Shown: positions 54,081-64,000 of the stretch, in pieces
Position numbering within the stretch: the first letter of the stretch is position 1
Layout: the number at the start of each line of letters is the position of its first letter
NCBI GenBank assembly: GCA_022821085.1
Contig: JAJEEG010000006.1
Coordinates: 877,330 to 941,329, forward strand
Reading direction: 5' to 3'
Origin: Candidatus Latescibacterota bacterium
GTDB taxonomy: Bacteria > JAAXHH01
Length of the DNA: 64,000 nt
Translations under genes and position numbers: made by a program
The notes under the pieces: model-generated
Databases searched by the model: none
Told to the model about the DNA's origin: nothing
What the model saw: the letters and a program-made list of their open reading frames with translations, nothing else

Positions 54081-55883
54081 ATGGACTGGGATCTGGCTTC
54101 TTACTTTCCTGCTTTCGACGGACCGGAGATGCGCCGTTTCAAGGCCGGCCTCCGGGACGACCTGGACACTTTGCTGACCGAAGCCGCGGCCACGGCGGCT
54201 TTGAACCCCGATAACCAGGATGCGTGGGAGGGTGTCGTCCTCTCCTTCGAAGACGCGGTCACCCGGTTGCGGCACCTGGGCTCCTACGTTTCCTGCATTA
54301 CCTCTGCCGACGCGAACAACGAGGATTTCGCCGCGGAGGAAGGGGCATTGAGCCTGCTGGACGCCCAGATGTCCAAGATCCTCGTGGAACTGCAGCGGGG
54401 ACTCAAGTCACCTGCCGACGAGGTTTTCGAGACGTTCACCTCCCGCCCCGCCCTCCGGGACGCTTGCTACCGTATTACCCGGATCAGGGAACAGTCCAGG
54501 TATACCATGTCCACGGAGGGGGAACACCTGGCCTCCGACCTGGGCGTGGACGGCATCGAGGCCTGGGGACGGCTATACGACAGGATCTCGGGCAAGCTGA
54601 CCTTCGAAATGACTTACCCGGACGGCCGGAGGGAGCAGGTGCCCATGTCCCAGCGGCGCGCCTTGATGGAACACCCCGACCGGCGTGTGCGCCGCGCCGC
54701 CTTCGAGGGGGGTAACGCGGCCTGGGCATCGATCGAGACCGTGCCGGCCGCCGCATTGAATGCCATCGGAGGCACGCGGTTGACCCTGTACCGTCATCGC
54801 GGCATGGATCATTACTTGGATAAGGCCCTCTTCCAGGCGGCGATCTCACGGGAAACGCTGGACGCCATGTTCGAAGCCGTATTTGCGGAAATCGACGTCG
54901 CCCGAAGCATCCTGGCATGCAAGGCGCGCCTCATGGGCGGCGATACCGTGGGCTGGTACGATCTCTCGGCGCCCCTGACCGTGGAGAACCAGGATGAACC
55001 TTCCTGGGACGATGCCAGGGCACTGGTGCATCGGGCATTCGCGGCCGGATACCCCGCCCTGGCGGATTACACGGTGGAGGCCTATGAGAAAAACTGGATC
55101 GACTGGTCGCCGCGGCCGGGCAAGCGCCCCGGCGCCTTCTGCACGGGATCTCCCCTGACGAAAGAATCCCGTGTCTACATGACCTACAACGACAGCATGG
55201 GGGACGTGTTGACGCTGGCCCACGAACTGGGGCACGCCTTTCACGGCCATCTGATGCGCGAGGCACGCACGCTGAACCGCGCCTATCCCATGACCCTGGC
55301 CGAATCCGCTTCCACCTTCGGCGAGATGCTGCTCATGCGGGGACTGCTGGAGGAACCGGGCGTCAGCGCCGGAACCAGGGCCTACCTGCTGAACCTGGAG
55401 GCCAGCGACGGCGCCACCTATCTGCTGGACATCCCGGTGCGCTTCGAGTTCGAAAAGGCCTTCCACGAAGAACGGGCGGATGGCGAGGTCGGCGTGAGCA
55501 GGCTGAAGGAGTTGATGGTCGAGACCCAGCGCCGCGTGCTCGGCGACGTGCTGGATCCCGAGGGCGGCGATCCCTATTTCTGGGCGTCCAAGCTCCATTT
55601 CTACATCACGGACACCACGTTCTACAATTTCCCCTATACTTTCGGCTATCTGCTCAGCCGGGGTTTCTTCGCCCAGTACGAAAAGGAAGGTCCGGATTTC
55701 CTGCCGAAATACGAGCAGTACCTGAAACGGACCGGCAGCGATACGGCGGAAAACGTGGTGCGGCAAAGCACAGGTCTCGAACTTTCAGACCCCGGTTTCT
55801 GGTCCAACGCCATCCGCGGCCTGGAAGGCGTGCTGGACCAGCTCAAAGCCAGCGTGGCCGAAAGCCGGGCGGCGTTGAACTAG
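54081..55883 (+). CDS. M3 family oligoendopeptidase (PepF-like)
   Basis: A 600-residue metallopeptidase. The catalytic zinc motif H-E-L-G-H is in TLAHELGHAFHGHLM (about residue 380), with the downstream glutamate in MTLAESASTFGEM. The preceding RPGKRPGAFCTGSPL and VYMTYNDSM segments match oligoendopeptidase F. The N-terminal helical region is complete, and the length is typical. It cleaves short peptides in the cytoplasm, probably supporting amino-acid use alongside the D-aminoacylase. The start ATG at 54081 has a purine-rich GGAAGGGA somewhat far upstream. No signal peptide is present. Confidence 0.93.
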   Translation: MDWDLASYFPAFDGPEMRRFKAGLRDDLDTLLTEAAATAALNPDNQDAWEGVVLSFEDAVTRLRHLGSYVSCITSADANNEDFAAEEGALSLLDAQMSKILVELQRGLKSPADEVFETFTSRPALRDACYRITRIREQSRYTMSTEGEHLASDLGVDGIEAWGRLYDRISGKLTFEMTYPDGRREQVPMSQRRALMEHPDRRVRRAAFEGGNAAWASIETVPAAALNAIGGTRLTLYRHRGMDHYLDKALFQAAISRETLDAMFEAVFAEIDVARSILACKARLMGGDTVGWYDLSAPLTVENQDEPSWDDARALVHRAFAAGYPALADYTVEAYEKNWIDWSPRPGKRPGAFCTGSPLTKESRVYMTYNDSMGDVLTLAHELGHAFHGHLMREARTLNRAYPMTLAESASTFGEMLLMRGLLEEPGVSAGTRAYLLNLEASDGATYLLDIPVRFEFEKAFHEERADGEVGVSRLKELMVETQRRVLGDVLDPEGGDPYFWASKLHFYITDTTFYNFPYTFGYLLSRGFFAQYEKEGPDFLPKYEQYLKRTGSDTAENVVRQSTGLELSDPGFWSNAIRGLEGVLDQLKASVAESRAALN

Positions 55884-55943
55884 CAGGCAGGATGCGAGCG
55901 GGGCGGGTCCATCTGTATGGGTCGGCCGGGCAAGGAGCGTCTT

Positions 55944-56693
55944 ATGACCGTCATTGAGGGGGAGCGCAACCGTTTCCACGGCGTGGAAGTCGGTTCGGAC
56001 GCCTTGCCCGACACGGCGGACGGATTCAAGGAGCGTCTGGCCCATTCGATCCGTATCTGGAAGGAAGAGGAATTGCAGGTCGCCTGGTTCGAAGTCCCCC
56101 TGTCCCGCGCCTTTCTCATCCCCGCGCTGGTGGACGCGGGCAGCGTTTTTCATCACAGTACCACAGACTACCTGATGCTGACGCTCCGCCTTGCCGAAGA
56201 CGCCTTCGTGCCGCTCTACGCGACCCATTACATCGGCGCCGGCGGCGTGGTGATCAACGAGAAGGACGAACTGCTCGTGGTCTGTGAGCGGTTTCGCGGG
56301 GGACGCGCGCCCTACTACAAGCTGCCCGGAGGCGCACTGCAGCCGGAGGAGCACCTCGCCGAGGGTGTCGTCCGGGAGGTTTTCGAGGAAACGGGCGTGC
56401 CGACCCGCTTCGACGGCCTGGTCTGTTTCCGGCACTGGCACGGTTACCGCTACGATAAGTCCGATATCTACTTCGTCTGCCGGTTGCGGCCGCTTCACCA
56501 GATCATCAAGATGCAGACCACGGAGATCGAGGAATGTTTCTGGATGTCCGTGGAGACCTACATGGGGTCGGAGAACGTCAGCCAGTTCAACAAGCTCATC
56601 GTCAAGGCCGCCGTGGAGAACCAGGGACTGAAGGAAACGTGGGTCGACGGCTACGGCGACCCGGAACGATACGAGTTCTTCATGCCGGAGTAG
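55944..56693 (+). CDS. Nudix hydrolase
   Basis: About 249 residues. An N-terminal domain of roughly 90 residues (RIWKEEELQVAWFEVPLSRA) resembles the pre-Nudix domain of NUDT6-like proteins. A complete Nudix box follows near residue 135, with G-G-A-L-Q-P-E-E at its start and R-E-V-F-E-E-T-G-V at its end. It hydrolyses a nucleoside diphosphate linked to another moiety; substrate unknown. The start is ATG 55944 with AAGGAG at 55932-55937; an in-frame ATG nine codons earlier lacks a ribosome site. It is the last gene before the low-GC cassette. Confidence 0.92.
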   Translation: MTVIEGERNRFHGVEVGSDALPDTADGFKERLAHSIRIWKEEELQVAWFEVPLSRAFLIPALVDAGSVFHHSTTDYLMLTLRLAEDAFVPLYATHYIGAGGVVINEKDELLVVCERFRGGRAPYYKLPGGALQPEEHLAEGVVREVFEETGVPTRFDGLVCFRHWHGYRYDKSDIYFVCRLRPLHQIIKMQTTEIEECFWMSVETYMGSENVSQFNKLIVKAAVENQGLKETWVDGYGDPERYEFFMPE

Positions 56694-56718
56694 GCAGGAG
56701 GGTGTACTTAGTTATACA
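56691..56718 (+). promoter_or_regulatory. weak candidate promoter for the MTase-NurA-HerA cassette
   Basis: TAGGCA (56691-56696), 16 bases, TATACA (56713-56718). The -10 region is A+T-rich and plausible; the -35 matches 4 of 6. No better element is seen in the short gap before the methyltransferase gene. Confidence 0.2.
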
Positions 56719-56726
56719 TAAAACAA

Positions 56727-58034
56727 TTGAGCACAGTAAGCGTATCGATCGTTGATGCCTATCCAGAATACAACATTACATTAACTCAATTCCACAGCCA
56801 GATGAAACGTGATCATCTTAAACAAGCACGCCAGCGTCAAGGCTCACTCCGAATAGCGGAAAGTATACCTGGGCGATTGGTGGTAAAACAAAGTCGGTGT
56901 ACTGCAAGCGTTATACATCCAAGCCCGTTTGATAGCCGGTCGCCGATTCGAAAACTCAATACCGTTTGCCCATATTATACAATGTTTCCATTAAGTTTCC
57001 CATTAGACGAACTTGGAAATGCACAGAAGGGAGAGTGGGTGTTAGATCCGTTCTGTGGTAGAGGGACAACTTTGTTTGCATCACGACTACATGGTCTTAG
57101 GTGTGTAGGAATCGACAGCAACCCAATCGCCGCAGCTATTTCCGCCGCAAAAGTTAGCGACGTCTCGGCGGAAGGGGTCATCGACCTCGCCAATGTACTA
57201 CTTAACAACTCACCGGCACCAGCAGACATACCAACGGGTGAGTTTTGGCGTATGTGTTACCATCCGGCTACACTTCGTAATATATGCGTCCTTCGCGAAA
57301 GACTATTGCAACGATGTTTCACTCAGGAAGAGATAGTGTTACGTGCACTGATTCTTGGGATTCTTCACGGACCACGCTATAAAAGTCAGCCTACCTACCT
57401 TTCAAACCAAATGCCTCGAACGTATGCGACGAAACCCACCGCAGCAGTACGTTATTGGTCTAGGTTATCAACAACGAAACCGCCGAATGTTGACGTTCAC
57501 GATGCGATAGCTCGTCGAGCTAGGTACTCGCTCTCAGCGATGGCACCTCCGGTAGAGGGTGAAGTATACTATGGTGATGCGCGGAATACTCATAATTTGG
57601 TACCGCTCAACAGAAGGTTCAATTGGGTCATTACGTCACCGCCCTACTTTGGAATGCAATCCTATAGACCGGATCAGTGGCTGCGTAATTGGTTCTTAGG
57701 AGGGAGCGACACTGTGGAGTATGGTAGCGAAGGTCAACTATCTCACCACTCCAAATTGTTTACGAGTTCACTGTCATCCGTTTGGAACAGCGTTGCAAAA
57801 CGATGTGAATCTGGCGCTAGACTGATAGTCAGGTTTGGGAATCTGCCTAGCCGGCCCTTAGATGCTGTTAGTGTTATTTGTGAGTCTTTGGAGTCATCAG
57901 AAGTCAATTGGCGAATACTTCGGAAGAAAGATGCAGGATCAGCCAGCAGCGGTAGACGGCAATCGGATCAGTTTGGCAAGGTAAATGGTTCAGCAGCGAC
58001 TGAAATTGATGTGTATGCTAAATTAGAGGGTTAA
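56727..58034 (+). CDS. site-specific DNA methyltransferase (N4-cytosine/N6-adenine class), low-GC cassette
   Basis: 435 residues from a TTG at 56727, or 410 from the ATG at 56802; neither has a clear Shine-Dalgarno, so the start is open. The AdoMet-binding motif I is V-L-D-P-F-C-G-R-G-T-T (about 105-115), followed by GIDSNPIA. The catalytic motif IV T-S-P-P-Y is at about 303-307 (VITSPPYFGMQSY). This order (AdoMet motif before catalytic motif) is the reverse of classic beta-class N4 methylases. About 190 residues between the two may hold target recognition. The gene is A+T-rich (57001-57060 is 28/60 G+C). It ends three bases before the NurA-like gene, so it is a unit with the nuclease and ATPase. 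Confidence 0.82.
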   Translation: MSTVSVSIVDAYPEYNITLTQFHSQMKRDHLKQARQRQGSLRIAESIPGRLVVKQSRCTASVIHPSPFDSRSPIRKLNTVCPYYTMFPLSFPLDELGNAQKGEWVLDPFCGRGTTLFASRLHGLRCVGIDSNPIAAAISAAKVSDVSAEGVIDLANVLLNNSPAPADIPTGEFWRMCYHPATLRNICVLRERLLQRCFTQEEIVLRALILGILHGPRYKSQPTYLSNQMPRTYATKPTAAVRYWSRLSTTKPPNVDVHDAIARRARYSLSAMAPPVEGEVYYGDARNTHNLVPLNRRFNWVITSPPYFGMQSYRPDQWLRNWFLGGSDTVEYGSEGQLSHHSKLFTSSLSSVWNSVAKRCESGARLIVRFGNLPSRPLDAVSVICESLESSEVNWRILRKKDAGSASSGRRQSDQFGKVNGSAATEIDVYAKLEG

Positions 58035-58037
58035 CCC

Positions 58038-59201
58038 ATGTTCGATCCTGAGGAACTACCGGCACTGCGGCAAACTGTACGGGACGCTACCGCGAGAGAT
58101 CGCTGTTTGTTGGATAACCTTCGAGAGGAGGTACAGTTTCTAACAAATGACGTACGGAGCATTAAGCCGCGAACGACTACATCGGTTTCGTTGGTTGCAA
58201 GCGATGGCGGGAACAACAACCTCGTATTTGATCCTTTTCATGTTCAGCTCGTTAGGGTCGTCGATTCGTACGGGGAACAGCTGTGTCTTGATGCTGTAAC
58301 ACCAACGACTGACACGGACATTTTAAGTCGAACACAGTTTGATGAAGATGGCTCACCGCGCACCGCGCTGGGTCGAATGATGTGTGACCTTAACGTTACT
58401 CCGCGTACTTTGAATCAACTAAGCCACATGATACCTGACGGTCGGAAAGTTAGAGAAACACCAGATGAGATATCTCCATCTTGGGTTCTGGTGTACCGAG
58501 ACCTTTGCGAATGGGCAGCATTGTACGACAGGATCTGCTATAGGGATTTTGCGACAAATACCCTATTTGTTCGAGATGGACTGCTGAGAAGCAAGTTATT
58601 TAGAGGTGAGTATTTCATAAACTACCGCAGAAGGATTGACCAAGCCATCATAAGAGCGTATCAGAACACAAAACGAAAGGTCTTATTGGTAGGGCTCGCC
58701 AAGCACAGCAAAGTACTTACTCGGTATAATCTAGCTATGGCAATTGAAGGTACGTTCGACGCGGAGGGTCCTAGGTATGTCAGAGTGCCTAGGTCTTTGG
58801 AATCGAAAGCATATGTATGGCCCGAATACGCTAGAGGAGCAGAAACTGAGGATGACGAAGGAGAAGCGCCAAAGTTTGTAGCCGGCGACATGTATTTCCT
58901 ACGTTTTGGTGATCGTAAAAGCGATCCATTATGGTCAGTCGACGTACTGAGCAGTCAAGCCTCTGATGCTGATGAGATCTTTGGTTACCTACTCGCTGAC
59001 GCCGTCCACGGCTTCCCCGTTCCATTTTACCCGCGATGTCTACAGAAGGCACACGAATACGCAGAAATCGTTGAATTCGATCTTGAAATCCTTCAGGACG
59101 AGATGTTCTTAGCCGTGCGTGGCTTACTTAGCGAAAATGAGATACCTGCACTGGAGGCGTTGCGTCTCCACAGCGACGTTTCGGCTCGGAGGTACGAATG
59201 A
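58038..59201 (+). CDS. NurA-like nuclease
   Basis: A 387-residue protein with NurA-domain hallmarks. An N-terminal aspartate motif lies in VSLVASDGGNN (D56), the second in LFVRDGLLRSK (D180), a lysine region in VLLVGLAKHSKVL, and a C-terminal GFPVPFYPRCLQKAHEYAEIV resembles the usual NurA ending. NurA is a manganese-dependent 5'-3' exonuclease and single-strand endonuclease that works with the HerA translocase. Here the last codons overlap the start of the HerA-like gene (ATGA), so the two are translationally coupled. A central acidic segment (about 270-285, ETEDDEGEAP) is distinctive. The identification is by motif pattern only; it is divergent from archaeal NurA. Confidence 0.75.
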   Translation: MFDPEELPALRQTVRDATARDRCLLDNLREEVQFLTNDVRSIKPRTTTSVSLVASDGGNNNLVFDPFHVQLVRVVDSYGEQLCLDAVTPTTDTDILSRTQFDEDGSPRTALGRMMCDLNVTPRTLNQLSHMIPDGRKVRETPDEISPSWVLVYRDLCEWAALYDRICYRDFATNTLFVRDGLLRSKLFRGEYFINYRRRIDQAIIRAYQNTKRKVLLVGLAKHSKVLTRYNLAMAIEGTFDAEGPRYVRVPRSLESKAYVWPEYARGAETEDDEGEAPKFVAGDMYFLRFGDRKSDPLWSVDVLSSQASDADEIFGYLLADAVHGFPVPFYPRCLQKAHEYAEIVEFDLEILQDEMFLAVRGLLSENEIPALEALRLHSDVSARRYE

Positions 59202-61357
59202 AACTGTTCGATAGGGACACGGTGGCCGGCATTTTTAAAGGTTTCAGTGAAGGTGGTATGGAGTTTCATGCCGATCTCGTATTGCCTTACAGAAATGAGT
59301 TTCAGCGTGCGCCTATGCACGGACAGTTCCTTGTCGTACAGCTCGAAGACGAGTATGAAGCAGTACTAGGACGAGTAACTTCAATATCATCACAAGGGCG
59401 TCTCGCTTCGTCTGCCGGTGAAGATTACGGTATAAGGGCTGTTGCTGAAGAACGCCCGATTCCTGAAGATCTTCGCGAACAGTATCTCAAATACCAGGTA
59501 GACATGAGAGTACTTGGTGTGTTACGAATCGTAAACGGTGACCTTGTATTTGCACCTTCCCATCGTCGCCTTCCACATGTCGGAAGTAAGGTAGCGTTTC
59601 TTACGGATGAGATATTACGTGAAGTCGCAGGTCACAATATCGCTGACGCTGCTGAAATTGGATATCTCGCACTAGGTGAGTTTATCTATGCTTGGGGTGA
59701 CCAAAGCCTTGAACCCGCCCCTTGGATGCAGGTCAGGAGTCCATTGGTGGTTCCGAGGTTTCACGTTCTGGATCTGGCATCGAGACGAACATTTGTATTT
59801 GCACGTGCTGGATTTGGTAAATCAAATCTGGTTAAACTGCTCTTCACCAACCTTTACAAGAACACACCAATGGTGGAGAAACGAGGCGGTAGAAAGGCAC
59901 CGGTCGGAACTGTGATATTTGACCCCGATGGTGAGTATTTTTGGCCAGATGACAAAGGCAGGCCGGGGTTATGCGATGTGCCAGGGTTACAAGACAGAGT
60001 GATAGTATTCACTCCCAAGCAAGGGCCGAGTGACTTTTACAATTCCTTCGTTGCTGGAGATATAAAACTAGATGTCCGTCGGTTACGTCCAAGTGACGTG
60101 ATTTCTATTGCGCTGTCTCCAGAAAAACAAGATCAGCAGAATGTCAGGAAATTGAAGGGAATGAACGATGAGGATTGGTTTGAACTGGTCGACCTGATCC
60201 ATAAGGATGGCAATGGTGCCGATGGAGAATCAGTCATGAGGCTATTGAGGTTAGAGAAAAGCCAAGAGGCTGAAATGGTAGCTGCTCGAGCCAATATGAC
60301 AACGATAGTACGTATGTTACATGATCCAAGTAGCCAGATGTTGGACATGCTCCTTGCATCGCTTCAGGATGGCCATATTTGCATTATCGACGTATCCCAA
60401 ATGCGCGGTGCGCCTGCACTTGTCCTGTCCGGTCTGATTCTTCAGAAAATATTTGACCACAATCAAGAAGAATTCACAAAAGCTCAACCCGAAACTATTC
60501 CAGTGATTGCGGTTGTCGAAGAAGCACAATCAGTTCTTGGCTCTACCGGAAGTTCTGGAGACGGACCTTATGTGACTTGGGTTAAGGAGGGTCGCAAGTA
60601 CGATTTGGGGGCCGTTCTAATTACTCAGCAACCTGGCTCTATTTCAGGCGAGATTCTAAGCCAAGGTGATAACTGGTTCGCATTCCACCTTCTTTCCTCT
60701 GGCGATCTAAGGGCGGTAAAAAACGCCAATGCACACTTCAGTGACGATATCCTTTCGTCTTTGTTGAACGAGCCGATTCCAGGACATTGTGTATTCTGGA
60801 GTAGTGTAGGTGGCAAAAGCTACCCGATTCCCACAAGGGTTTTGTCGTTTGAGGGTCTCTACAAGGCATTGGATCCCAATTACGATAAACCAAGCGTAAA
60901 CACAGCTGCGCAGAACCTGCACCAAAGATTCGCTCAGGAAGTTGAAAACGCTCGACAATCGGTTCAGTACGAGAAACATGAAGAAGAGACAAGCCAAGTG
61001 AAGATGGAGCCAACGCCATACGATGAATCCGCTCCCGACGAAGAGACTGATCCATTGACACTTTACAAAAACGCTGCAATTGACAAATTCAAACGGGATA
61101 CTGAAATACAGAACCGTTTGAAACAAAATGGAGTGCCCTGGAAGGGGGTTCAGGAGTGTCTAAAAGGATACCTGCCAGATGTACTGGATGATAAGGACAA
61201 CATTGCCCATCATCTCGTCCGTAAAGCCATGGATGTGGTATTTGGCGAACAAGAGAAAGCGTGGAAAACTGAAAAACGACCTGCAAAGACTGGGTCAGGA
61301 AACACAACTTGGGTGGTTGTAGTTACACAGGCTAAGGACTCACCTAATAACGCTTAA
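59198..61357 (+). CDS. HerA-like DNA translocase ATPase
   Basis: A 719-residue protein. Residues 1 to about 180 form a HAS-barrel-like beta domain, followed by a HerA/FtsK-type ATPase. Walker A is R-A-G-F-G-K-S-N with K208; IFDPDGEYFWPD is the HerA DxDxEY-like segment; Walker B is VIAVVEEAQSVL near residue 440; ITQQPGSISGEILSQ is the sensor region. An acidic, probably flexible linker (about 585-625) precedes a C-terminal helical tail. HerA forms hexamers that pump DNA and activate NurA. No Mre11 or Rad50 gene is nearby, unlike in archaeal herA-nurA operons. The start overlaps the NurA-like stop by four bases. A line at 60481-60540 is 28/60 G+C. Confidence 0.87.
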   Translation: MKLFDRDTVAGIFKGFSEGGMEFHADLVLPYRNEFQRAPMHGQFLVVQLEDEYEAVLGRVTSISSQGRLASSAGEDYGIRAVAEERPIPEDLREQYLKYQVDMRVLGVLRIVNGDLVFAPSHRRLPHVGSKVAFLTDEILREVAGHNIADAAEIGYLALGEFIYAWGDQSLEPAPWMQVRSPLVVPRFHVLDLASRRTFVFARAGFGKSNLVKLLFTNLYKNTPMVEKRGGRKAPVGTVIFDPDGEYFWPDDKGRPGLCDVPGLQDRVIVFTPKQGPSDFYNSFVAGDIKLDVRRLRPSDVISIALSPEKQDQQNVRKLKGMNDEDWFELVDLIHKDGNGADGESVMRLLRLEKSQEAEMVAARANMTTIVRMLHDPSSQMLDMLLASLQDGHICIIDVSQMRGAPALVLSGLILQKIFDHNQEEFTKAQPETIPVIAVVEEAQSVLGSTGSSGDGPYVTWVKEGRKYDLGAVLITQQPGSISGEILSQGDNWFAFHLLSSGDLRAVKNANAHFSDDILSSLLNEPIPGHCVFWSSVGGKSYPIPTRVLSFEGLYKALDPNYDKPSVNTAAQNLHQRFAQEVENARQSVQYEKHEEETSQVKMEPTPYDESAPDEETDPLTLYKNAAIDKFKRDTEIQNRLKQNGVPWKGVQECLKGYLPDVLDDKDNIAHHLVRKAMDVVFGEQEKAWKTEKRPAKTGSGNTTWVVVVTQAKDSPNNA

Positions 61358-61441
61358 CCAGAGGACTGTCCTTTCAAAAAACCAACAGTCAGTGTGGATT
61401 GGGATTCGAGGACACATTTTTAGTGGAGGTTATACCAACCC

Positions 61442-62848
61442 ATGGCTAAAACCAGTCGGCGGCGCAAGAAGCGTCCAAACATCGTACTGTTGGGCGTGGA
61501 TTCACTTCTGGCCGATCACATGAGCTGTTACGGCTACCAGCGCCAGACCACGCCCCACATCGACCGGTTCGCCGAGGGCGGCGCGCTGTTCGAGAAGACC
61601 TACAGCGCCCATATACCTACGACCAGCGCCTATGCGTCCATGCTCACCGGCCTGGATGCTTTCGGCACCCAGGTCGTGGCCTTGCGGCACAAGGGAGGGC
61701 TCCGGGAGGACGTGCAGACGCTGCCCGAGATCCTGCGGGAGCATGGATACGCGACCACCTGCGTGGGCTTCACGGGGAACCCGTCATCCCGGGGTTTCGA
61801 CAAGTACATCGAGTATCCGAGTTGGGGCAGCTGGAACGAGGGGCGCAGTCCCAAGGCGCAGAACCTGAACGACGTGGCGATCCCGGAGCTGGACCGGCTC
61901 GCGAAACGGCGCGGCCCTTTCTTCCTGTTTCTCCGCCACATGGACCCTCATGCGCCGTACCTGCCGCCGGAACCCTACGAGCGCATGTTCTATCACGGCG
62001 ACGAGTGCGACCCGAAGAACCGGTCCATGGACCCGGTCATGGCGTTCAAGCCCTTCTGTGACTTCTTCAAGTCCTGGATGCCGCCCGGCATCACCGACAA
62101 GGACTACGTCATCGCCCAGTACGACGGCGCCGTGGCGTACATGGACGCCTGCATCCAGACGATCTTCAACGCCCTGGAAGCCCACGGCATCATGGACGAG
62201 ACGATCGTGATCCTCAACGGGGACCACGGCGAGACGCTCTACGACCATGAATGCTGGTTCGACCACCACGGCCTCTACGACGTGACGCTCCACGTGCCGC
62301 TCATCATCCGGTATCCGGGCAGGGTCCCCGCGGGAAGCCGCGTCAGCGGGTACAACCAGCACAAGGACCTCGTCCCCACCATCATGGACCTGGCCGGGAT
62401 CGAAACGGGAATCTACTTCGACGGCGACAGCCTGATGTCGCTGGTCGACGGCACGGTTTCGTCCTTCGACAGCGAGTTCTACATTACCGAGTGCACCTGG
62501 ATGCGCAAGCACGGCTGGCGCACGCCGCAGTGGAAGCTCATGGTCGCCCTGGAACCGGATTTCCATTTCAAGCCGCCGGTCGAACTGTACAACCTGGTGG
62601 AGGATCCCGACGAGAACAACAACCTGGCCGAGGAACTGCCGGAGGTGGTAAACCTGCTCAAGCGGCGGATGAATGGTTGGATCCGCAAGCGGGTGAAGGA
62701 GACCGGAAAGCGTAATCCCATGCTCACGCAGGGAGACTGGCACGGTCACGAGGGCGTAGGCGCCTTCAAGTCCTCGCAGCAGGCCTACGACACGATGCAC
62801 ATCGGAGACCCCAACCAGGCCGCCAGTCTGCAGGCGCGCAGCAGGTGA
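61442..62848 (+). CDS. sulfatase-like hydrolase lacking the formylglycine signature
   Basis: A 468-residue member of the alkaline phosphatase/sulfatase superfamily. Metal ligands include D20 in VLLGVDSLLADHMSCYGY and the NGDHGETLYDHECWF segment (about 258). The position aligned with the modified cysteine of sulfatases is Thr60 (HIPTTSAYASMLTG), with Ser and Tyr in place of the signature proline and arginine, so formylglycine cannot form. Thr could serve as nucleophile as in phosphodiesterases/phosphonate hydrolases, or the enzyme is not a sulfatase. GGAGGT precedes the ATG. GC content returns to the high background here, marking the right edge of the cassette. Confidence 0.87.
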   Translation: MAKTSRRRKKRPNIVLLGVDSLLADHMSCYGYQRQTTPHIDRFAEGGALFEKTYSAHIPTTSAYASMLTGLDAFGTQVVALRHKGGLREDVQTLPEILREHGYATTCVGFTGNPSSRGFDKYIEYPSWGSWNEGRSPKAQNLNDVAIPELDRLAKRRGPFFLFLRHMDPHAPYLPPEPYERMFYHGDECDPKNRSMDPVMAFKPFCDFFKSWMPPGITDKDYVIAQYDGAVAYMDACIQTIFNALEAHGIMDETIVILNGDHGETLYDHECWFDHHGLYDVTLHVPLIIRYPGRVPAGSRVSGYNQHKDLVPTIMDLAGIETGIYFDGDSLMSLVDGTVSSFDSEFYITECTWMRKHGWRTPQWKLMVALEPDFHFKPPVELYNLVEDPDENNNLAEELPEVVNLLKRRMNGWIRKRVKETGKRNPMLTQGDWHGHEGVGAFKSSQQAYDTMHIGDPNQAASLQARSR

Positions 62849-62995
62849 TGGGACCTGTACATGTGGGTTCGCAGCCGCGCTCACTATGCGGGCTATGCGG
62901 GCGCCCTGGTGGAGTGGAATGAGCAAGTAACTGAAATACATCAACTTAATGCGTGTTATTATAGCAGCGATGTTTGCGCAAAGGAGCGTTTGACG

Positions 62996-63991
62996 ATGGG
63001 TTTGAATATCGCGGTGGTCGGCATGGGCGGCATCGGCAACAACCATGCCCGGAACTACCAGGCACATGAAGCGTGCACGATCGTCGCCGTTTGCGACGCC
63101 ATTAAGGAAAAGGCCGACGAGGCGGCGCAGACCTACGGATGCCAGGCATTCTACAGCGTCGGCGACTTGCTGAACAGTGGGCTGAAGGTCGACGCGGCCA
63201 GCGTATGTACCGCCGGCGTGGAGAACGGCGGAGACCACTACGCGCCCACGATGGAACTGCTGGGCGGCGGCATTGCCGTACTGGGCGAAAAGCCCATTTC
63301 GAACGAGATCCCGAAAGCCCGGGAGATGGTTGCGCTGGCCCGGGAACGGGGCATTCGCTACGGGATAAACCTCAATCACCGCTTCACACCCGCCGCGTTA
63401 CGGGCGAAGGAATGGGTCGAGGCCGGCCGTCTGGGCGAGTTGAACATCATCAACATGACGATGTGGATCAACAACCCCAACGAAAGTTCGCCCCATTTCC
63501 ACATGCGGGCGCTCCATCCCCACTCCATCGACGTGATGCGGTATTTCTGCGGGGACGTGGCGAAAGTGCAGGCCTTCTTCAAGAAGGGCAGGGGAAGGAA
63601 GATCTGGTCCAACGTCCAGGTCAACATGCTGTTCGAAAACGGTGTCGTCGGCCACCTGACCGGCAGCTACGACGCCGGAGGAAGCTACGGCCTGGAGACC
63701 TGCGAGGTCGTGGGGTCGGACGCCCGGTTTGTCATACGCGAAGCCTGCGAGCAGCTGGAGTTCTTCCCCAGGCATTCGAGGGAAGTGGAGTCCTACCAAT
63801 ACCTGGGCGGCATGTTGGGGTTCTCCGAAACGTTCGAATCTCGGATCACCCGCTGGGTCGAACAGAACCTGGAAAGCGCGGCGCCAGAAGAAATCGACGC
63901 AAAGGCCGAAGATGCCTTGCGCGCCCAGTTGATCATCGAGGCCGCCATCGAATCCTGGGATACGGATTCCGTGGTGACGGTGCAGTATTGA
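62996..63991 (+). CDS. Gfo/Idh/MocA family oxidoreductase
   Basis: About 331 residues. The N-terminal Rossmann fold shows AVVGMGGIGNNHARNY and the family motif G-E-K-P-I-S. The following RYGINLNHRFTPAALRAKEW belongs to the catalytic domain, and ALHPHSIDVMRYFCGD carries the usual histidine/aspartate of the active site. Such enzymes oxidise or reduce sugars and inositols with NAD(P). The start is the ATG 62996, nine bases after AAGGAG (62981-62986); the frame is open 45 codons further, but that is leader with a TATTAT box at 62957-62962. It ends near the window edge with an intact stop. The substrate is unknown. Confidence 0.9.
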   Translation: MGLNIAVVGMGGIGNNHARNYQAHEACTIVAVCDAIKEKADEAAQTYGCQAFYSVGDLLNSGLKVDAASVCTAGVENGGDHYAPTMELLGGGIAVLGEKPISNEIPKAREMVALARERGIRYGINLNHRFTPAALRAKEWVEAGRLGELNIINMTMWINNPNESSPHFHMRALHPHSIDVMRYFCGDVAKVQAFFKKGRGRKIWSNVQVNMLFENGVVGHLTGSYDAGGSYGLETCEVVGSDARFVIREACEQLEFFPRHSREVESYQYLGGMLGFSETFESRITRWVEQNLESAAPEEIDAKAEDALRAQLIIEAAIESWDTDSVVTVQY

Positions 63992-64000
63992 CGACTAAGG

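What the first reader, a model, noticed from the sequence alone, without database searches (positions are those of the whole stretch)
56694..61441. Low-GC DNA methyltransferase-NurA-HerA cassette, a candidate uncharacterised DNA-processing or defence system
Seen: three plus-strand genes with a 3-base gap and a 4-base ATGA overlap, sampled G+C 28/60 at two places versus 41/60 nearby. They encode a DNA methyltransferase with permuted motif order, a NurA-like nuclease and a HerA-like ATPase. Known: HerA hexamers couple to NurA for DNA end processing in archaea, and HerA ATPases pair with other effectors in bacterial anti-phage systems. Inference: the methyltransferase marks self DNA while HerA-NurA degrades unmarked or free-ended DNA. 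I do not recall a named system with exactly this three-gene composition.
Basis: partly seen in the sequence, partly recalled or inferred. Interest (0 to 1): 0.85.

Follow-up and report, generated by a model that had tools for sequence, protein, structure and literature searches.

The report
Candidate DNA-marking, DNA-shredding defence cassette
A compact, horizontally moving three-gene cassette pairs a DNA-marking enzyme with a DNA-pumping motor and a nuclease, probably so that a microbe can shred unmarked invading DNA; in a sister group the marking enzyme is replaced by DruA, a defence protein of unknown function, which gives a direct, testable hint at what DruA does.

Summary
Window 56727-61357 holds an MTase, a NurA-like nuclease and a HerA-like ATPase in one tight operon (47% G+C against 63%), inserted between a NUDIX and a sulfatase gene. 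Of 11 congeneric genomes, 8 have only 49-63 bp there, 2 carry Zorya II at that site, 1 is unresolved. The site is therefore a defence hotspot.

The nuclease fails Pfam NurA. By profile and structure it is closest to TdpB (Z 23; NurA Z 14), and the motor is closest to TdpA. These belong to Tdp, a phosphorothioation system.

One genome scan plus the window gave 60 loci in many bacterial and archaeal phyla. 30 have the MTase, 16 have DruA in its place, none has both, 8 have neither, 6 are unresolved. Partners co-diverge with the pair.

Best reading: a modification-guided restriction module. The partner marks self DNA, and HerA-NurA pumps in and destroys unmarked DNA (inferred, not shown).

Most novel reading: DruA is a GNAT-fold DNA-modifying enzyme. 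Its model's top structural match is phage Mu Mom (tied with other GNATs; not supported by sequence profiles), and most cyanophage homologues read lie among clamp-loader genes.

The parts
56727..58034 (+). N6/N4-type DNA methyltransferase, motif order X-I-(target recognition?)-IV (TSPPY); TTG start uncertain, conserved part begins near residue 75
58038..59201 (+). TdpB/NurA-like RNase H-fold nuclease; D56, E158 and D/E180 conserved
59198..61357 (+). TdpA/HerA-like ATPase (Walker A GFGKSN, EEAQ, EGRK, TQQP); N-terminal HAS-barrel match is weak and below its cut-off
56695..61433 (.). inserted segment, absent in 8 of 11 other genomes of the genus and replaced by Zorya II in 2 (1 unresolved)
55917..56693 (+). 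left flank of the hotspot: NUDIX hydrolase gene (not part of the system)
61442..62848 (+). right flank of the hotspot: sulfatase gene (not part of the system)

Best explanation
A compact modification-guided restriction system, a methylation-based counterpart of Tdp. The MTase methylates a sequence motif in the host genome. The HerA-like hexamer threads duplex DNA by ATP hydrolysis into a dimer of the TdpB/NurA-like nuclease, which degrades it. Methylated host DNA blocks loading, pumping or cutting, so only unmarked incoming DNA is destroyed. Shown here: operon, homology, conserved active sites, co-divergence, hotspot insertion and partner exchange. Inferred: methylation target, hexamer/dimer complex, methylation sensitivity, anti-phage activity.
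For: HerA's best solved match is TdpA, 8wet, 1.5e-21, next 5.5e-10. The 53-row nuclease profile finds TdpB at 7.1e-7 and nothing else below 0.1 in the PDB. The nuclease model (pLDDT 89.4) matches TdpB at Z 23.3 over 326 residues, NurA at Z about 14, Argonaute PIWI domains at Z about 10. Catalytic D56 and E158 are kept in 55 of 55 full-length copies, and position 180 is D in 50 and E in 5. In 50 full-length motors EEAQ, EGRK and TQQP are kept in 50 of 50 and Walker A GKSN in 49 of 50, L024 lacking it. In the genus, 8 of 11 other genomes have an empty site, 2 have ZorA-ZorB-ZorE there, 1 is unresolved. The cassette-type MTase is adjacent in 30 of 60 loci and DruA in 16 of 60, never both. MTase distances track NurA and HerA distances, Mantel r 0.68 for both, 0 of 2000 permutations as high, 26 loci. 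No family recurs in more than 2 of 120 scanned neighbours.
Against: No phage-challenge or methylome data. 8 of 60 loci show the nuclease-motor pair without MTase or DruA beside it. In the six of these genomes that were searched there is no close MTase elsewhere, and a good DruA elsewhere in only one. So a marking enzyme may not always be needed, although 2 of the 8 have a convergent D12-class MTase beside the pair. The partner exchange needs one change on the tree, so it is one event, not many. The nuclease was not found in plasmids, phages or viral contigs, so its vehicle is unknown. Co-divergence would also follow from the cassette simply moving as one piece.
Confidence: 0.7

Rival explanations
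1. A DNA-repair module: HerA-NurA resects double-strand ends and the MTase or DruA is regulatory or accidental.
For: Archaeal and Deinococcus HerA-NurA are described as end-resection enzymes (starts of abstracts of PMC12977600 and PMC9960219 in the listings).
Against: Patchy, low-GC insertion at a site that carries Zorya II in relatives. Co-diverging partner. Nuclease closer to TdpB than to NurA. No PF09376 match in the window's genome. PMC12977600 itself argues against a direct resection role for its own complex (passages).
Confidence: 0.1
2. Type IV-like logic: HerA-NurA attacks modified DNA, and the MTase or DruA either has another role or tags the invader for destruction.
For: The pair can occur without a marking enzyme beside it (8 of 60 loci).
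Against: An operon-encoded MTase with a nuclease against its own mark would be suicidal (inference); in Tdp the mark is thought to protect (recalled; An et al. 2025 seen only as a reference).
Confidence: 0.1
3. End- or replication-intermediate sensing nuclease (Hachiman- or RecBCD-like), with specificity set by free ends rather than by modification; the MTase is an add-on that counters phage or plasmid restriction.
For: HerA-NurA of T. kodakarensis degrades both strands of duplex DNA exonucleolytically, whatever the end structure (abstract and passages). Partner-less pairs exist.
Against: Strong partner association and co-divergence.
Confidence: 0.1

Closest known systems
Tdp phosphorothioation system (An et al. 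2025, Nat Chem Biol; seen only as a reference, not held; PDB 8wet, 8wfd; function of TdpC recalled)
   Same: Closest solved relatives of both the motor and the nuclease; a modification enzyme plus a HerA/NurA-type effector pair (recalled)
   Different: The third gene is an MTase (or DruA in the sister clade) instead of the phosphorothioating enzyme TdpC
Canonical archaeal/Deinococcus HerA-NurA
   Same: Same folds
   Different: PF09376 does not match the nuclease; MTase/DruA partner; defence-hotspot location
SIR2-HerA and HerA-DUF4297 anti-phage systems
   Same: HerA-family motor paired with an effector (mentioned in PMC12977600, passages)
   Different: Effector is an RNase H-fold nuclease; NCBIfam antiphage-HerA model far below cut-off (55.9 of 800 bits)
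Druantia type I
   Same: The sister clade carries full-length DruA (PADLOC DruA1 2e-122)
   Different: DruA is paired with nuclease-HerA; a DruE-like helicase was recognised beside 1 of 16 DruA loci (L067; not searched systematically). In 4 of 4 plasmid DruA regions read, a DEAD/DEAH helicase gene lies nearby, as in Druantia
Dnd core with methylase in place of phosphorothioation (Rakesh, Aravind, Krishnan 2024, PMC10853773; abstract and passages read)
   Same: Precedent for one defence core using alternative DNA marks
   Different: Different core (DndD/E); that paper reads the DUF4338 (DruA) domain as a GNAT co-effector acting on proteins

Membership tests
Tdp system | TdpA-like HerA translocase | tested here: met
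   Best PDB sequence match 8wet_A, 1.5e-21, next best 5.5e-10
Tdp system | TdpB-like nuclease | tested here: met
   Profile E 7.1e-7; Foldseek 8.3e-11; Z 23.3, 326 aligned, rmsd 4.0
Tdp system | TdpC-like phosphorothioation enzyme in the operon | tested here: not met
   The third gene is an N6/N4 MTase; TdpC was not searched for elsewhere in the genome
Tdp system | Modified self DNA resists the HerA-nuclease pair | not testable with these tools
   Needs biochemistry
NurA (PF09376) | Match to the NurA family profile | tested here: not met
   No match at E up to 1; none in the genome, while 7 of 14 control genomes gave one
NurA (PF09376) | NurA fold with acidic active site | tested here: met
   3taz_B Z 14.2, 2ygk_A Z 13.9; D56 and E158 invariant in 55 of 55; their equivalence to NurA's catalytic residues is inferred from position
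HerA ATPase (PF01935) | DUF87/HerA central domain | tested here: met
   65.4 bits, cut-off 23.2
NCBIfam antiphage HerA (NF042943) | Score over curated cut-off | tested here: not met
   55.9 bits of 800
Druantia type I (sister clade only) | Full-length DruA | tested here: met
   PF14236 1e-80; PADLOC DruA1 2e-122
Druantia type I (sister clade only) | DruB present | tested here: inconclusive
   0 of 12 genomes, but no positive control rang
Druantia type I (sister clade only) | DruE helicase beside DruA | tested here: inconclusive
   DruE-like gene beside L067 (6.2e-86); the other DruA loci were only read for large ORFs, and several contigs end early
Mom-type DNA modification enzyme (for DruA) | Mom-like GNAT fold | tested here: inconclusive
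   Top match 8bv8 Z 8.6, 183 aligned, tied with other GNATs at 8.3; best Foldseek PDB E 0.03; local profile comparison P 0.04-0.14, no Mom HMM match

The most novel reading that the evidence does not exclude
The nuclease-HerA pair is a generic restriction engine that accepts interchangeable self-marking enzymes: phosphorothioating TdpC, an MTase, or DruA. DruA (DUF4338), of unknown function in Druantia type I, would then be a GNAT-fold enzyme that hypermodifies DNA bases, as phage Mu Mom does, and Druantia I would be a modification-guided system. Phages would carry DruA homologues among their replication genes to mark their own genomes.
Probability: 0.4. Interest if true: 0.9.

Novelty: new variant of a known kind. 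Interest (0 to 1): 0.76.

Why it matters
If true, a small three-gene module found in many bacterial and archaeal phyla is a new branch of modification-restriction immunity, and HerA-nuclease pairs turn out to be general restriction engines. It also gives a concrete hypothesis for DruA, a gene of Druantia I listed as of unknown function (PMC7251935, passages): that it makes a DNA base modification. Mass spectrometry of DNA from a DruA-expressing laboratory strain could test this directly.

Tried and rejected
Canonical NurA by profile: rejected. Links to MADS (mad8, 2.8e-10) and Dnd (DndH, 0.0032, 3.7e-8 for the G007 HerA) I read as general HerA similarity. A mobile-element vehicle was sought and not found: no nuclease match in plasmids, phages or viral contigs.

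A sequence-level link between DruA and Mom was sought with Mom relatives from phages and two GNAT control sets. Local hhalign P: 0.075, 0.044 (core) and 0.075 (full), 0.042 and 0.14, against 0.17-0.85 for the controls. In global mode there was no trend: Mom 0.35 and 0.78, controls 0.46-0.89. The Mom HMM matched no DruA or phage homologue (best E 0.15). So the claim rests on fold and context only. The GNAT control sets were rough: ORFs of 120-260 aa, several loci dropped by length. Only chains that Foldseek ranked could appear in the VIA lists.

A wider phylum-by-phylum survey failed, so partner counts rest on one pattern-based scan. Its peptide patterns came from two sequences, so other partner types may have been missed. 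Of 173 flanking ORFs, 148 were printed after a cut at 700 aa and a size cap, and I handed on 120 of these; large helicases such as the DruE-like gene of L067 were therefore outside that scan, and some ORFs may be antisense. Rows dropped in the Mantel test: L075, L058, L026 (MTase set) and L077, L062 (DruA set), mostly broken or fused copies; loci without a usable copy of all three genes also fell out.

Divergent triplet in G002: HerA at the end of contig C43, NurA-like plus MTase at the start of C41; the contig ends do not overlap, so adjacency is unproven. G009's HerA-like gene lies beside a SIR2-like gene by reading of its ORFs, not by a profile. Paper searches for TdpA with phosphorothioation found nothing and one for TdpABC found only unrelated papers in its listing.
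Full report
WHAT IS THERE. Three plus-strand genes at 56727-58034, 58038-59201 and 59198-61357, with a 3-base gap and an ATGA overlap, have 47.4% G+C against 63.0% for the rest of the window; none of 260 overlapping windows of the same size upstream falls below 60.4%. Gene 1 is an N6/N4 DNA methyltransferase (PF01555 5.9e-9; PADLOC MTase_II 8.7e-19) with motif order X, I, then TSPPY (motif names recalled). Gene 3 is HerA-like (PF01935). Gene 2 matches no family in Pfam, PADLOC, NCBIfam or PHROGs at the thresholds used.

WHAT THE NUCLEASE AND MOTOR ARE. A profile of 53 relatives finds TdpB at 7.1e-7 and nothing else below 0.1 in the PDB. An AlphaFold2 model (pLDDT 89.4) matches TdpB best (Foldseek 8.3e-11; Z 23.3 over 326 residues), then NurA (Z about 14), then Argonaute PIWI domains (Z about 10). 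The motor's best solved relative is TdpA (1.5e-21; next 5.5e-10). Both subunits thus point to Tdp, a phosphorothioation system; its paper (An et al. 2025) is not held, its title was seen only in reference lists, and what I say of TdpC is recalled. Residues D56 and E158 are kept in 55 of 55 full-length nucleases, and position 180 is D in 50 and E in 5. In 50 full-length motors EEAQ, EGRK and TQQP are kept in 50 of 50 and the Walker A GKSN in 49 of 50, the exception being L024.

WHERE IT SITS. DNA of window 54081-64000 was searched in 12 genomes of the genus, the own one included. In 8 of the 11 others (G002, G003, G004, G007, G008, G009, G010, G012) the two matching arms lie 49-63 bp apart with no cassette (coordinates; the sequence of two such sites, G003 and G007, was read). 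In G006 the arms are on different contigs. In G005 and G011 about 2.95 kb lies at this site and encodes ZorA, ZorB and ZorE of Zorya II (PADLOC: ZorA2 9.7e-100 and 1.2e-100, ZorB2 1.6e-89 and 5.3e-90, ZorE2 1.3e-74 and 1.8e-74). The insertion point is thus a hotspot used by known and candidate defence systems. This is the strongest evidence here for a defence role.

HOW IT TRAVELS AND WHAT IT TRAVELS WITH. In 16 genomes of the phylum the nuclease was found in 2: the own genome and G007, at 35% identity. G007's copy is a three-gene cassette at another place, with DruA (PF14236 1e-80) in place of the MTase. A scan of genome contigs (one genome for each of 84,980 species) with both nucleases as query gave 59 loci (L021-L079; L072 is the G007 copy) from many bacterial and archaeal phyla. 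Counting these 59 plus the window: the cassette-type MTase is adjacent in 30 of 60 (25 before the nuclease, 5 after the motor), DruA in 16 of 60 (10 before, 6 after), both in 0 of 60. Two DruA loci, L065 and L072, have a distant MTase-like ORF further off (45 and 66 bits); that of L072 lies beside a NotI-like nuclease gene and looks like a separate R-M system. Neither partner is present in 8 of 60 where at least 300 bp are visible on each side (L025, L029, L041, L045, L046, L047, L055, L057). Six of 60 are unresolved (L027, which keeps only the last 29 residues of an MTase; L056, L058, L059, L060, L078). Of the 8, L041 and L046 have a convergent D12-class adenine MTase beside the motor (PF02086), and L045 has another N6/N4 MTase of the PF01555 order about 1.2 kb upstream. 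In six of these 8 genomes (L041, L045, L046, L047, L055, L057) no close relative of the cassette MTase lies elsewhere; the best hits are distant, 2.0e-25 and 5.0e-23, in those of L045 and L047. For DruA, that of L046 has one elsewhere, 1.1e-97, and that of L045 a marginal hit, 9.0e-6.

CO-DIVERGING PARTNERS. On a tree of 53 nucleases, 43 of them with a known partner, partner type needs one change and gene order three (quick method; the tree warns of one long branch, L057): an MTase clade and a DruA clade. Protein distances of partner and pair correlate: 26 MTase loci, NurA-HerA r 0.85, NurA-MTase 0.68, HerA-MTase 0.68; 14 DruA loci, 0.95, 0.84, 0.85; 0 of 2000 permutations as high in each. Shared descent of the whole cassette would also give this. 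Among 120 scanned neighbouring ORFs no PADLOC family (E up to 1e-8) or Pfam family (E up to 1e-5) recurs in more than two. The conserved unit is therefore the pair plus its partner; some neighbours are defence genes (Cas6, CARF, type IIG, CapP).

WHAT DruA TELLS. DruA takes the slot held by an MTase here and, by recall, by TdpC in Tdp. A DruA model (pLDDT 73.1) has a GNAT-type fold: the best Foldseek PDB matches are mostly acetyltransferases but weak (E 0.03 and above). In the second-look alignment the top chain is phage Mu Mom, a DNA adenine-modification enzyme (8bv8, Z 8.6, 183 residues aligned, the longest alignment of the 50 rows shown), tied within 1 Z unit with ordinary GNATs (8.3 and below, 133-175 aligned). 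Profile-profile comparison gives no significant DruA-Mom relation, and the Mom HMM does not find DruA. In the phage collection DruA homologues occur in 20 records, 17 of Synechococcus phages or cyanophages and 3 of Pelagibacter phages, some of them duplicate records; DruA-like proteins in six Synechococcus phages were already reported (PMC12774648, passages). Of 8 whose neighbourhood I read, 7 lie in a gene cluster with DNA polymerase clamp-loader genes, adjacent or with one or two genes between, and one (PQ898602) is annotated by its depositors as 'methylcarbamoylase mom'. Seven of the eight, aligned together, match DruA at 98.8% probability (E 4e-17). A gene among the phage's replication genes suits DNA modification better than a suicide effector (inference). 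Against this, Rakesh et al. 2024 (PMC10853773; abstract and passages) recognised DUF4338 as GNAT and proposed a protein-targeting co-effector. That paper also reports methylases in place of phosphorothioation around the Dnd core, a precedent for swapping marks. Druantia's helicase DruE is kin to helicases of DISARM and of Dpd, 7-deazapurine in DNA (PMC12458937, passages), so DruA may again sit where a related system keeps a DNA-modifying enzyme.

MECHANISM. Most likely (0.7): the MTase marks host DNA at a motif; the HerA-like hexamer pumps duplex DNA into the dimeric TdpB/NurA-like nuclease; unmarked DNA is degraded. The homology, operon, conservation, hotspot and partner data are shown; target motif, complex, mark sensitivity and phage protection are inferred. 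The partner-less pairs are the main difficulty: they may use a host-wide mark, another MTase, or recognise ends.

NOVELTY. The library was searched for HerA, NurA, methyltransferase and anti-phage together (2 papers, neither on such a triplet by title and start of abstract); for HerA, NurA and DruA (49 papers with at least two, 25 listed; papers with more terms come first and none listed holds DruA); for Druantia, GNAT, Mom protein and DUF4338 (5 papers); and for DruA with DNA modification (2 papers, neither holding that phrase). In what I saw of these (listings, and passages of PMC10853773, PMC7251935 and PMC12774648), none describes an MTase-NurA-HerA or DruA-NurA-HerA cassette or DruA as a DNA modifier. 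Most subscription papers are not held, so this is not proof of absence. I class it as a new variant of the modification-restriction kind; the interest lies in the exchangeable marking slot and the testable role for DruA.

Noticed in passing
L110 214-3127 and L111 248-3161 (G005, G011): Zorya II (ZorA-ZorB-ZorE) occupies the intergenic site used by the window's cassette.
   Followed up: yes
L067 11214-16298 (-): A DruA-NurA-HerA cassette in a Phycisphaerae MAG is followed by a convergent 1694-aa DruE-like helicase, a possible link between this cassette and Druantia.
   Followed up: partly
L114 4501-6705 and L115 1-2063 (G002): HerA-like gene at one contig end, NurA-like (DGPL motif, by eye) plus MTase at another contig start: possibly a more divergent HerA-NurA-MTase triplet; the join is unproven.
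   Followed up: partly
L195-L202: DruA homologues of marine phages lie in a cluster with clamp-loader genes in 7 of 8 phages read; one is annotated as Mom.
   Followed up: partly
DruA model, viral library: The DruA model's best matches among viral predicted structures are uncharacterised proteins of Faunusvirus (6.1e-16), Yasminevirus and Dasosvirus, so DruA-fold proteins may also occur in giant viruses.
   Followed up: no
L041 11352-12233 and L046 11353-12240 (-): In two cyanobacteria the partner-less pair has a convergent D12-class adenine MTase just downstream.
   Followed up: partly
L025, L029: Two Methanoperedens contigs carry the pair without MTase or DruA; L025 also encodes what looks like a phage-portal-type protein (by eye), so these may be extrachromosomal elements.
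   Followed up: no
L116 7053-10657 (G009): A SIR2-like gene (by eye) beside a HerA-like gene, in a region with an MTase and a helicase: perhaps another defence island in the genus.
   Followed up: no
L194 (Haloplanus plasmid): A haloarchaeal DruA of about 700 aa is followed by two unknown genes and a gene annotated as DNA translocase FtsK, with a DEAD/DEAH helicase on the other side; this may be another DruA-translocase system.
   Followed up: no
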